Both the position numbers and the translations under genes were made by a program. A stretch of 64,000 nucleotides of DNA from Acinetobacter harbinensis (lineage in GTDB: Bacteria > Pseudomonadota > Gammaproteobacteria > Pseudomonadales > Moraxellaceae). The stretch lies in the NCBI RefSeq assembly GCF_000816495.1, contig NZ_JXBK01000001.1, forward strand, positions 1,524,516-1,588,515. Direction: 5' to 3'. The notes under the pieces were generated by a model. The model was not told the DNA's origin. It saw only the letters and a program-made list of their open reading frames with translations, and did no database searches. The stretch's first letter is position 1; each line of letters starts with the position of its first letter. Below are positions 12,928-15,112 of the stretch, in pieces.

Positions 12928-13376
12928 AAGCCTATCTGTAAAACATTATGTTGCTTATTATACAAAAATTAACCAAAGATAAACAGGTTAAATAATTAAA
13001 ATAGATATATATTATTTTATATATAATTAACAGTAACTTATAAATAATTAATGTTAAAAAATAAACTAAATTTTGTTATTTTAAAGTTGATTAAAATGCT
13101 TTGTATTGTTGTTTTTAATCCCGACTAAAATGGTTATATATTATATTTAAAGTTGACTAAAATGGTTGAATATTATTAATGCATTAAAGAGTATTTATAA
13201 ATGAGATTGATTGATATTTTAATTCAAACTTAAATACATTGAAAAGTAATAGCGGAAAATCAAATATCGGTATGCTGATGAGCAAGGCAAAGGTTATCGG
13301 GACTGTCATCAAAAGACCACCCGAAGGCAGTCTTGGATTACATCAAAAGGACAGTAAAATGTTAACCAGAGGATTA
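12928..13376. other. AT-rich intergenic region upstream of the cyd operon
   Basis: This 450-bp non-coding stretch separates the cydP start from the porin stop, and both genes are on the minus strand. It must hold the cyd promoter. It contains three direct repeats (listed separately) in an otherwise very AT-rich background. Near the porin end, two CATCAAAAG copies (about 13307 and 13340) flank a weak AAGAC/GTCTT hairpin that could terminate the porin transcript. No ORF or RNA gene is supported. Confidence 0.6.
13081..13170. promoter_or_regulatory. Three phased direct repeats (GAYTAAAATG) upstream of cydPABX
   Basis: The cores GATTAAAATG (13089-13098), GACTAAAATG (13123-13132) and GACTAAAATG (13155-13164) are spaced 34 and 32 bp apart, about three helical turns. 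The first and third share the longer AAAGTTGAYTAAAATG. The third copy, extended to AAAGTTGACTAAAATGGTTG plus AATAT, agrees at about 21 of 25 positions with the IscR type 1 consensus as I remember it (ATASYYGACTRWWWYAGTC plus RRSTAT); the second agrees at about 19 and the first at about 16. They lie 160-240 bp upstream of cydP and are candidate operators for an Rrf2-family regulator. Function is inferred, not shown. Confidence 0.5.
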
Positions 13377-14414
13377 TTAAAAGTTAAGTTCCATGCCCAA
13401 GCCAAACACCGATTGTGAATCTTCTGCGCCCCAGTCACGTTTTTGCTGAGCCAGTAAGCCATACAGTTTGGCTTGTTTGTTGAGTGTATAATCCACAGCG
13501 ACACCATATTGATCTACTGTGCGGTCGTTACCTGTCCAAGAGGTATCCGCCGTTTGGTATTGTGCTTTTAGTGTCCAAGGTGTAGTCGCAATTTTATAGG
13601 TGGCATTAATTAGCCATGCTTGTTCTTCTAGGTTTAAGGCTTTACCTACCGAAGAGGTCGCTTCAGCCGTTTGATACAGTGCATTTAAGCCTAAACCTTC
13701 CACACCAACTTTGGCTAAATCATAAGAGCCGGTTAAGCGAAAAGCATCACTGGCTTGTTTGCTGCTGCCAAAACTTGAGGCAGAGTATTTGCCTTTCACA
13801 TCAAAGTCACCGGCCAAAGCCAAAGCTAAACCTAAATCTTTATTTTCATAAGTGATTGAAGTGGAAATTGCATCACCAACGCCATTGTCGCCGTCAGCCT
13901 TATTTTCTTCACCTTGTTGCAGCATGATATTAAGACCGACACCGGCCAGTCGTTTTGGATCGGTTTCAAAACCAACCACGTTTTTTAGGCGTTCTTCGCC
14001 ATAGATCATGCTGGTCATGTCAAAGCTATGATCATTAAAAATATCATTTTTACTGGCTGCGGCTGTTTTAAAGTAGGAGTCATAGTTACCGGCTTTTAAG
14101 GTGCCAAAACCATTCCATTTTAATCCTGCATAGATATTACGTTTCTTAAAGGTTTGGCTATCATCTTCATCGCCATCGACACTAATTTCCCACTCTGCTA
14201 AATATAAAGCCGAAAGTTGATCTGAAATTTTTTCTTCGCCTTTGACCCCAATACGGGATGAATTAGAATTCACCTCGGTGACATTTTCACTGCCAAAACT
14301 TTTATTATTAAATTGATCAATGCTGACGTTTACTTTACCGTAAAGTGTAGGCGCAGCTTGTGCTGCATGTAAGCTTAAACTGGTTATTGCTACGGCAAGA
14401 AGCAATTTTTTCAT
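13377..14414 (-). CDS. Gram-negative general porin (outer membrane beta-barrel)
   Basis: This 345-residue outer membrane protein has a signal peptide (MKKLLLAVAITSLSLHAAQA, cleavage after AQA) followed by APTLYGKVNVSID, the usual first strand of trimeric porins of the proteobacterial type. Alternating-residue beta strands, RIGVKGEEKISDQLSALYLAEWE and an eyelet-like loop follow, and the last residue is Phe (GLGMELNF), the signal recognised by the BAM complex. GGAG lies 7 bases before the ATG. Two tandem Pho-box-like sequences and a matching -10 lie 100-160 bp upstream, so expression under phosphate starvation and a role as an anion or phosphate-selective channel are plausible. Selectivity cannot be read directly from sequence. 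Confidence 0.88.
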   Translation of the reverse strand: MKKLLLAVAITSLSLHAAQAAPTLYGKVNVSIDQFNNKSFGSENVTEVNSNSSRIGVKGEEKISDQLSALYLAEWEISVDGDEDDSQTFKKRNIYAGLKWNGFGTLKAGNYDSYFKTAAASKNDIFNDHSFDMTSMIYGEERLKNVVGFETDPKRLAGVGLNIMLQQGEENKADGDNGVGDAISTSITYENKDLGLALALAGDFDVKGKYSASSFGSSKQASDAFRLTGSYDLAKVGVEGLGLNALYQTAEATSSVGKALNLEEQAWLINATYKIATTPWTLKAQYQTADTSWTGNDRTVDQYGVAVDYTLNKQAKLYGLLAQQKRDWGAEDSQSVFGLGMELNF

Positions 14415-14516
14415 TGATATTTCTCCAAAACACGATCTTTAAAGGCGACAGCCTGACATAGCTTTTTAAGTACGCTGATGTAGGACAACCTACACAAGCT
14501 CACCTGCTTGCAATGC

Positions 14517-14522
14517 AGTATC
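14517..14522 (-). promoter_or_regulatory. Candidate -10 element of the porin promoter
   Basis: On the minus strand GATACT stands exactly 10 bases after the proximal Pho-box-like repeat, the spacing found at PhoB-activated promoters where the box replaces the -35. This would give a leader of about 95 bases. Confidence 0.4.
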
Positions 14523-14532
14523 TGTAATCTTT

Positions 14533-14572
14533 ATGACAGTGCAGTGAACGATCAATGACAGTTTAATGAACT
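14533..14572 (-). promoter_or_regulatory. Two tandem Pho-box-like sites upstream of the porin gene
   Basis: Read on the minus strand, the region is built from 7-mers separated by 4 bases: AGTTCAT-TAAA-CTGTCAT (14572-14555), TGAT, CGTTCAC-TGCA-CTGTCAT (14550-14533). The PhoB box is two 7-bp CTGTCAT repeats with a 4-bp spacer; here the second 7-mer of each box is perfect and the first is degenerate (TCAT or TCAC conserved). The 22-bp period puts both boxes on one helix face. Binding by PhoB is inferred from this match. Confidence 0.6.
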
Positions 14573-14620
14573 GTTGAGTGAGGTGGAGATTAAGAAATTC
14601 TTTATTCTTATTATATGCTT

Positions 14621-14646
14621 ATAAAAAATGGAGCCGAAGCTCCATT
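14621..14646 (-). terminator. Rho-independent terminator of the HIT protein gene
   Basis: On the minus strand the stem AATGGAGC-GCTCCATT closes on a TTCG tetraloop and is followed by a T run. It begins 21 bases after the stop of the HIT gene. Confidence 0.92.
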
Positions 14647-14667
14647 GGATCAATTAAAAATGAGAAT

Positions 14668-15081
14668 TTAAAGCGCGGCTTTAATTTTTTCAGCCAAGGC
14701 TTTAATTTTTTCCTGATCACCCATTTGTAAGGCATGTTTACCCAGCTCATGAACTGAACTTGGAATAAGATGAAAGTGCACATGCGGTACGGTTTGACCC
14801 GCTGCTGCACCGGAAAGTTGCATCAACACAATGCCTTTCACTTCTAAAGCTTTTTCCATCGCCTGTGCAATTTTTTGCACAATTTGAATGGTATAAGCCG
14901 CAGCTTCTGGCGGTAAATCAAGCAGGGTTAACGCAGGGGTTTTGGGAATCACCAGCGTGTGACCTTCAGCTTGCGGCATGATGTCCATAAAGGCCAACAC
15001 TTGATCATCTTCATATACTTTTATGGCAGGCAATTCGTTGCGAATAATGCGTGCGAAAATATTTTGCTCATCGTAAACCAT
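14668..15081 (-). CDS. HIT family protein (histidine-triad nucleotide hydrolase)
   Basis: HIT proteins hydrolyse nucleoside phosphoramidates or dinucleoside polyphosphates. The 137-residue protein has the N-terminal FARIIRNELPAIKVYED, the substrate-fold segment AFMDIMPQAEGHTLVIPK, and the histidine triad PHVHFHLIP with His100, His102 and His104. Length and motif fit the HinT/Fhit-like branch common in Acinetobacter. It lies 31 bp after the YARHG-like gene on the same strand and may share its transcript. The physiological substrate is unknown. Confidence 0.92.
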   Translation of the reverse strand: MVYDEQNIFARIIRNELPAIKVYEDDQVLAFMDIMPQAEGHTLVIPKTPALTLLDLPPEAAAYTIQIVQKIAQAMEKALEVKGIVLMQLSGAAAGQTVPHVHFHLIPSSVHELGKHALQMGDQEKIKALAEKIKAAL

Positions 15082-15112
15082 GTCTAATCCTTGAAAATGC
15101 TTGAAGCTGTAA

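What the first reader, a model, noticed from the sequence alone, without database searches (positions are those of the whole stretch)
14517..14572. Porin promoter carries two tandem Pho boxes with a correctly spaced -10
Four 7-mers with 4-bp spacers on the minus strand include two perfect CTGTCAT copies, 22 bp apart, and GATACT stands 10 bases downstream. This predicts a phosphate-starvation porin (PhoE/OprP-like role) in Acinetobacter, a regulatory assignment the protein sequence alone would not give.
Basis: partly seen in the sequence, partly recalled or inferred. Interest (0 to 1): 0.65.

Follow-up and report, generated by a model that had tools for sequence, protein, structure and literature searches.

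The report
Phosphate-starvation promoter of an Acinetobacter porin
The gene for a pore protein in the outer wall of this Acinetobacter carries a strong, widely conserved switch of the kind that turns genes on when phosphate runs short, so the pore is very probably made to let in more phosphate during starvation.

Summary
On the minus strand, 14572-14517, AGTTCAT-4-CTGTCAT-4-CGTTCAC-4-CTGTCAT-10-GATACT precedes a 345-aa Porin_4 gene. A matrix trained only on pstS promoters of the genus ranks it first of about 128,000 positions in the window, 18.0 bits against 4.8 for the next. In the 2.9-Mb genome a degenerate four-repeat pattern has two best hits: this porin and pstS. The array, 10 nt before GATACT, scores 0 or more in 92 of 94 orthologue promoters and reaches 5 bits in none when shifted by 1, 2, 3 or 5 nt. 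It is absent from 16 paralogue promoters and recurs in 5 of 6 related porins of a second genus. The genome has a PhoB equivalog. The porin is therefore very probably PhoB-activated. It is a general porin, not of the OprP family, with Glu where PhoE has Lys125. Ten library searches showed no paper on it; a 2025 paper asks for the A. baumannii PhoBR regulon to be delineated. A porin-specific leader with a moderately supported hairpin follows the promoter. Known kind, apparently unreported member.

The parts
14533..14572 (-). double Pho box: four 7-mers with 4-nt spacers (11-bp period), AGTTCAT / CTGTCAT / CGTTCAC / CTGTCAT
   Evidence: rank 1 of the window with a pstS-trained matrix; 92 of 94 orthologues at 0 bits or more at the fixed register
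14523..14532 (-). 10-nt spacer between the last 7-mer and the -10; same layout as in pstS promoters
14517..14522 (-). -10 hexamer GATACT; the hexamer 17 nt upstream is ACTGCA (2 of 6 to TTGACA), so no -35
   Evidence: GATACT within 200 nt of ATG in 94 of 94 orthologue promoters; no sigma-70-type match at this site
14415..14516 (-). region from -10 to ATG, holding the presumed 5' leader (transcription start inferred, not mapped)
   Evidence: in 41 genomes a model of the leader finds at E below 1e-4 only this porin's own leader
14468..14505 (-). leader hairpin H1 (contains the palindrome TGTAGG-TTGT-CCTACA)
   Evidence: moderate support
14443..14454 (-). small leader hairpin H2, AGGC-UGUC-GCCU (GGC....GCC in most orthologues)
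   Evidence: weak to moderate
14415..14430 (-). conserved ribosome-binding stretch TTTTGGAGAAATATCA just before ATG
   Evidence: TGGAGA invariant in 79 distinct leaders
13377..14414 (-). porin gene, 345 aa with signal peptide, Porin_4/Porin_1, porin-barrel fold
14627..14646 (-). terminator-like stem and T-run after the upstream HIT gene
   Evidence: 2 such sites found, 1.6 expected in shuffles
14668..15081 (-). upstream neighbour, HIT-family gene (synteny anchor)
   Evidence: HIT motif within 1 kb upstream in 88 of 94 orthologue loci

Best explanation
This is a PhoB-activated promoter of a general-type porin. When phosphate is scarce, phosphorylated PhoB binds the four half-sites as two head-to-tail dimers, standing where a -35 element would be. 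It recruits sigma-70 RNA polymerase to GATACT 10 nt downstream. The porin then raises outer-membrane permeability so that phosphate, including that set free by the co-regulated phosphatase PhoX, reaches the PstS system. Shown here: the site, its architecture, its conservation, its likeness to the pstS promoter, and a PhoB gene. Inferred: PhoB binding, induction by low phosphate, and the transport benefit.
For: (1) Matrix trained on 23 distinct pstS promoters: 18.0 bits, first in the window by 13 bits. (2) Genome-wide four-repeat pattern: 9 hits against 3 for the reversed control pattern; the only two one-mismatch hits are this porin and pstS, and one of seven two-mismatch hits lies before PhoX. 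(3) 94 orthologue promoters: 92 at or above 0, 87 at or above 5, 71 at or above 10 bits at the fixed register; shifts of 1, 2, 3 or 5 nt give none at or above 5. Of 9400 shuffled upstream regions 20 reach 5 and 2 reach 10, of 94 real ones 89 and 82. (4) 16 paralogue promoters: best 0.7. (5) 5 of 6 porins of a second genus carry the same array and spacing, two of them near-copies (11.0 to 22.1 bits), and lie on the same side of the porin tree. (6) PhoB equivalog over its cut-off. (7) The same matrix reaches 5 bits before 14 of 23 olsB-type (PF13444) genes; A. baumannii olsB is phosphate-responsive and its lipids need PhoR (PMC11828411). (8) No -35, as in activator-dependent promoters.
Against: No expression, binding or transport data were seen. 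Two orthologues (L003, L004) lack the array, and L025, L042 and L029 reach only 2.1, 4.3 and 4.5 bits. Porins of three other genera (g8, g10, g12) show none. The matrix is genus-bound: it scores the E. coli phoE promoter at -9.6 at best, so it cannot speak for distant genera either way. The main text of the A. baumannii low-phosphate RNA-seq paper has no 'porin', and its gene table was not open to me. PhoE Lys125 is Glu141 here and acidic in all 15 group members compared; the mature chains of the group have a median net charge of -11.
Confidence: 0.88

Rival explanations
1. The array is bound by another OmpR-family regulator that uses direct repeats (for example OmpR, or a second PhoB-like protein), and the porin answers to osmotic or another stress.
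For: One search lists 20 matches to the PhoB model in this genome, one over the curated cut-off, so other response regulators exist. Porins are classical OmpR targets (recalled).
Against: The repeat sequence, the 11-bp period and the 10-nt distance to -10 equal those of pstS and, more loosely, those before phoX and olsB-type genes. The one regulator over the PhoB cut-off suffices.
Confidence: 0.06
2. PhoB binds, but as a repressor or fine-tuner, so the porin falls in phosphate starvation.
For: The sequence does not give the sign of regulation.
Against: The array stands at the -35 position, 10 nt before -10, as at the pstS promoters used for training, and the promoter has no -35 of its own, which fits activation.
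Confidence: 0.04
3. The repeats are chance or low-complexity matches without function.
For: Two of the four 7-mers are degenerate; the bare two-copy pattern within 2 mismatches is expected 0.53 times in the window.
Against: 0 mismatches in that pattern; matrix score above all 40 shuffles of the window; conservation of 1.41 bits per core column against 0.58 in spacers and 0.19 upstream, over an effective 12.8 sequences.
Confidence: 0.01

Closest known systems
PhoE of E. coli (phosphoporin; induction by PhoB in phosphate starvation recalled)
   Same: Porin of the same fold (1pho, Z 24.5, rmsd 3.5 over 294 residues); predicted PhoB control; arginines aligned with PhoE R37, R75 and R126 are kept (R54, R92, R142)
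   Different: 36.3 bits against the PhoE equivalog cut-off of 599; E141 in place of PhoE K125; about 20% identity; the phoE promoter itself is not recognised by the Acinetobacter matrix (best -9.6)
OprP/OprO of Pseudomonas (phosphate/polyphosphate-selective porins, recalled)
   Same: Expected physiological role in phosphate starvation (recalled); OprO appears among the fold matches (Z 24.1, tied with PhoE)
   Different: No Porin_O_P match in Pfam; OprO match at 12% identity
KpnO of Klebsiella pneumoniae (OmpC-type porin controlled by PhoBR, PMC3405095; passages read)
   Same: General-type porin under PhoB
   Different: [quoted passage not shown] four half-sites ending 118 nt before ATG here
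olsB promoter of A. baumannii (Pho box, PhoR-dependent aminolipid synthesis; PMC11828411, abstract, section 8 and passages read)
   Same: Same genus, same box type; the same matrix reaches 5 bits before 14 of 23 olsB-type genes
   Different: Lipid enzyme; lower median score (5.6, best in 800 nt, against 14.2 for the porin, best in 400 nt); no PF13444 match in this genome
PorB of Neisseria, Omp32 of Delftia/Comamonas, BpsOmp38 of Burkholderia
   Same: Nearest solved folds (Z 25.3 to 27.5; Foldseek E 6.5e-18 to 2.1e-14)
   Different: About 20% identity; nothing in these calls on Pho control of them

Membership tests
PhoB-activated (Pho box) promoters | tandem 7-mers like CTGTCAT, 4-nt spacers, 11-bp period | tested here: met
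PhoB-activated (Pho box) promoters | box about 10 nt upstream of -10 and a missing -35 | tested here: met
   10 nt; ACTGCA at the -35 position; no sigma-70-type match there; same layout in pstS
PhoB-activated (Pho box) promoters | conserved in orthologous promoters, absent from paralogues | tested here: met
   92 of 94 orthologues at 0 bits or more at the fixed register; best of 16 paralogues 0.7
PhoB-activated (Pho box) promoters | a PhoB orthologue in the genome | tested here: met
   335.9 bits, cut-off 296.2
PhoB-activated (Pho box) promoters | PhoB binding and phosphate-dependent expression | not testable with these tools
   needs footprint, reporter or RNA data
General (Porin_4/Porin_1) porins | family profile over the curated cut-off | tested here: met
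   103.5 against 27 and 64.3 against 23.7 bits
General (Porin_4/Porin_1) porins | barrel fold of this class | tested here: met
   model mean pLDDT 77.3; Z up to 27.5
General (Porin_4/Porin_1) porins | trimer | not tested
   no complex was predicted
PhoE phosphoporin | PhoE equivalog model over cut-off | tested here: not met
   36.3 against 599 bits
PhoE phosphoporin | Lys at the PhoE K125 position (its role in anion selectivity recalled) | tested here: not met
   Glu141 in two MAFFT alignments with E. coli PhoE, E or D in all 15 group members; the phmmer alignment agrees but at low posterior there
OprP/OprO phosphate-selective porins | Porin_O_P profile (PF07396, accession recalled) | tested here: not met
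   not among Pfam matches at E 0.001

The most novel reading that the evidence does not exclude
The porin is a core, previously unnamed member of the Acinetobacter PhoBR regulon with two layers of control: a four-half-site PhoB promoter and, just downstream, a porin-specific structured mRNA leader (H1, H2 and a conserved ribosome-binding stretch). The leader tunes translation or stability of the message, or the H1 palindrome serves as a second regulator's operator. Phosphate limitation would then change which solutes and antibiotics enter these cells through this pore.
Probability: 0.3. Interest if true: 0.65.

Novelty: new member of a known kind. Interest (0 to 1): 0.5.

Why it matters
PhoBR was found to be needed for A. 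baumannii fitness in mouse infection, and the authors stress the importance of delineating its regulon (PMC12604733, passages). A porin whose promoter fits the pstS matrix better than those of phoX and olsB-type genes (medians 14.2, 11.1 and 5.6), and which is kept in A. baumannii, A. pittii, A. nosocomialis and A. baylyi, links phosphate starvation directly to outer-membrane permeability, and so possibly to nutrient and drug entry. It is directly testable in the laboratory strain A. baylyi ADP1.

Tried and rejected
Rejected: chance; membership in the PhoE or OprP families; a pore made basic as a whole (median net charge -11 for 15 group members, -7.5 for 10 paralogues, -16.5 for 6 of the second genus). 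K27 and R54 are basic in all 15 group members and all 6 of the second genus but in none of 10 paralogues; I do not claim selectivity from it.

Results that cut the other way. The E. coli phoE promoter, a porin promoter that PhoB controls (recalled), scores -9.6 at best with my matrix: the matrix works within this genus and near it, and the missing arrays in g8, g10 and g12 are weak evidence of absence. Shifts of the array by one whole repeat still leave 16 (-11 nt) and 36 (+11 nt) of 94 promoters at 5 bits or more, as expected of a repeat. Six of 94 loci have no HIT motif upstream; two of them (L003, L004) lack the array, four (L005, L010, L013, L052) keep it.

Leader, weak points. RNAalifold on the MAFFT alignment gave 8 pairs at -1.4 kcal/mol. 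The hand-drawn structure has 86% of cells paired against 32-40% when slid, and a covariation score of 0.147 against at most 0.062; but slid versions reach 10 and 12 pairs with two-sided change against its 11 (shuffled mean 6.5), and it was drawn from one of the rows. H1 folding: mean z -1.61 in 15 diverse leaders (8 below -1.5), +0.04 in the rest of the leader (14) and +0.35 in the promoter (15), but only -0.69 over all 92. Rfam: no match in 13300-15100. The leader model was built from these leaders, so it finds them by construction; three weaker matches elsewhere (E 0.016 to 0.059) were not examined, and the search used strict filters.

Other. Plasmid collection: 15 records with a match, none at 60% identity; best three are A. 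baumannii records at 53.5%. Papers: 10 library searches showed no paper on Pho control of an Acinetobacter porin, judged from the listings and from passages of seven papers; subscription papers and supplements were not seen, and one search listed 20 of 27 and one search listed 40 of 54. PMC5757984 (passages) lists phosphate genes repressed by mucin without this porin, but its table is grouped by predicted function, so this says little. PMC7481262 (passages), PMC5382811 (passages) and PMC6971185 (passages) say nothing on it in what I saw.

Rows dropped: of 127 genus genomes with a match, 96 were taken as orthologues (E to 1e-59, my cut); 2 (G030, G108) had too little upstream sequence, leaving 94. 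16 loci were taken of the many weaker matches as 'paralogues'; three of their genomes (G009, G012, G076) have no orthologue, so there the name is loose. Of 30 pstS loci (41 genomes had a match) 29 gave a site by a pattern that asks for the third and fourth repeats, so the pstS set leans to that architecture; L169 has poor first repeats; the porin scores are independent of this choice. olsB-type loci: the 23 best PF13444 matches; phoX: 29 loci, of which L350 and L351 hold only a later part of the gene and L334 is cut. L003 and L004 were left out of the leader alignment and identical leaders merged (79 of 92 kept). For the tree 15 of 16 chosen group proteins were found. L354 was fetched but not examined.

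Full report
What is there. The minus strand at 14572-14517 reads AGTTCAT TAAA CTGTCAT TGAT CGTTCAC TGCA CTGTCAT AAAGATTACA GATACT. The array ends 118 nt before the ATG of a 345-aa gene, 14414-13377, that matches Porin_4 and Porin_1 over their cut-offs. A terminator-like stem follows the upstream HIT gene (14646-14627), so the porin probably has its own transcript.

Is it more than chance. I took pstS loci of the genus (41 genomes searched, 30 loci fetched). 29 of the 30 gave a site by a pattern for the third and fourth repeats. By eye 28 of these show four repeats at 11-bp spacing, and the hexamer that lies 10 nt later is CAAAAT in 22 of 29. A 24-column matrix from the 23 distinct pstS sites ranks the porin site first of about 128,000 positions: 18.0 bits, next 4.8. 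The best scores of 40 Markov shuffles of the window averaged 3.6, the highest being 13.1. In the whole 2.9-Mb genome the pattern TCA-7-GTCA-7-TYAM-6-TGTCAY has nine hits within two mismatches, against three for the reversed control; the two with one mismatch are this porin and pstS. One of the seven with two mismatches lies before a PhoX phosphatase gene (PF05787), which the matrix scores 21.4 (L339). A further four-repeat stretch (G000:C1:600623-600660) lies before a 321-aa protein with a sub-threshold PHO4 (phosphate transporter) match. The genome has one PhoB equivalog over cut-off.

Conservation. Of 149 genus genomes 127 have a relative at E 1e-20. I took 96 as orthologues (E to 1e-59, 53-61% identity); 94 had enough upstream sequence. 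All 94 have GATACT within 200 nt. Scored at the one register that ends 10 nt before it, 92 are at or above 0, 87 at or above 5 and 71 at or above 10 bits. Shifted by 1, 2, 3 or 5 nt either way none of the 94 reaches 5; shifts by a whole repeat leave 16 (-11) and 36 (+11) at 5 or more, as expected of a repeat array. Shuffled upstream regions reach 10 bits in 2 of 9400, real ones in 82 of 94. Sixteen promoters of 36-43%-identical relatives ('paralogues') score 0.7 at best. Core columns hold 1.41 bits, spacers 0.58, the DNA just upstream 0.19, over an effective 12.8 sequences. The exceptions are L003 and L004; L025, L042 and L029 score low (2.1, 4.3, 4.5). Named holders include A. baumannii (L192), A. 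nosocomialis, A. pittii, A. calcoaceticus, A. baylyi, A. haemolyticus, A. junii and A. indicus; of 12 named records printed, 11 carry the array at the register, and L248, a Moraxellaceae MAG, does not.

Beyond the genus. In the same family five of six porins of a second, unnamed genus (g14) have the array, the 10-nt spacing and a GATACTT or AATACTT -10, with quite different spacers (11.0 to 22.1 bits; two of the five are near-copies). Three other genera do not: g10 (five stretches of four genomes), g12 and g8 (one each). In the tree the Acinetobacter group is one clade (100/100), and g14 lies with it on the far side of a 100/100 branch from the 10 paralogues. Limit: the matrix does not recognise the E. 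coli phoE promoter (best -9.6), so silence in distant genera is weak evidence. Whether Pho control is old with losses or gained twice was not tested.

Validation on a gene with data. A. baumannii olsB is induced by low phosphate (log2 fold change 8.57) and its lipids are not made in a phoR deletion (PMC11828411, section 8 and passages). The same matrix reaches 5 bits before 14 of 23 olsB-type genes (median 5.6) and 21 of 29 phoX loci (median 11.1), each the best score in up to 800 nt. The porin's median is 14.2, best in 400 nt, so its promoter fits the pstS matrix better than that of a gene known to respond.

How it most likely works. PhoB-P binds the four half-sites as two head-to-tail dimers at the place of a -35, which the promoter lacks (ACTGCA, 2 of 6), and brings polymerase to GATACT. 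The mechanism of PhoB activation is established knowledge, recalled here. The porin has the fold of PorB, Omp32, BpsOmp38 and PhoE; PhoE and OprO are tied in that list (Z 24.5 and 24.1). In two alignments with E. coli PhoE it keeps the arginines at R37, R75 and R126, while K125 is Glu141, and E or D in all 15 group members (the phmmer alignment agrees, at low posterior). I therefore predict more flux of small solutes, phosphate among them, by more pores, not a phosphate-selective channel.

Leader. From -10 to ATG about 100 nt are conserved in 79 distinct leaders. A hairpin H1 (14505-14468) is kept in position while its sequence and length vary: 15 diverse leaders fold with mean z -1.61, flanks near zero. 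It is well paired against slid controls (86% against 32-40%), but the count of two-sided changes is not above all slid controls (11 against up to 12), and over all 92 leaders the mean z is -0.69. Support is moderate. A model of the leader finds, in 41 genomes, only this porin's own leader at E below 1e-4 (25 genomes). One of these places (G030:C27) is a contig end that runs into the start of the gene; weaker matches were not examined. Its function is unknown; mRNA stability or translation control is my first guess, a DNA operator (TGTA-N8-TACA) the second.

What is known. Ten library searches showed no report of an Acinetobacter porin under a Pho box. PhoB-controlled porins are a known kind: PhoE and OprP (recalled) and KpnO (PMC3405095, passages). 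So this is a new member of a known kind, well supported by sequence, with the phosphate response itself still to be measured.

Noticed in passing
14415-14516 (-): Porin-specific conserved mRNA leader with hairpin H1, small hairpin H2 and a conserved ribosome-binding stretch; H1 also reads as a DNA palindrome TGTAGG-TTGT-CCTACA.
   Followed up: partly
G000:C1:600623-600660 (L114): Four 11-bp-spaced Pho-like repeats before a 321-aa protein with a sub-threshold PHO4 match, probably another phosphate-regulon promoter.
   Followed up: partly
G000:C1:864859-864895 (L174, L339): Strong Pho box (21.4 bits) before the PhoX alkaline phosphatase gene of this genome.
   Followed up: yes
G000, whole genome: No PF13444 (olsB-type) match in this genome although 25 of 41 genus genomes have one: the phosphate-starvation aminolipid pathway may be missing here.
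   Followed up: no
L273-L277 (second genus of the family): Porins with the same four-half-site array and 10-nt spacing; the sixth (L278) and three other genera show none.
   Followed up: partly
L003, L004, L248: Orthologues without the array; L003 and L004 also have no HIT motif upstream, as if the gene had moved from its old context.
   Followed up: no
proteins, residues K27 and R54 of the window porin: Two basic positions kept in 15 of 15 group members and 6 of 6 porins of the second genus but in 0 of 10 paralogues; R54 aligns with PhoE R37.
   Followed up: partly
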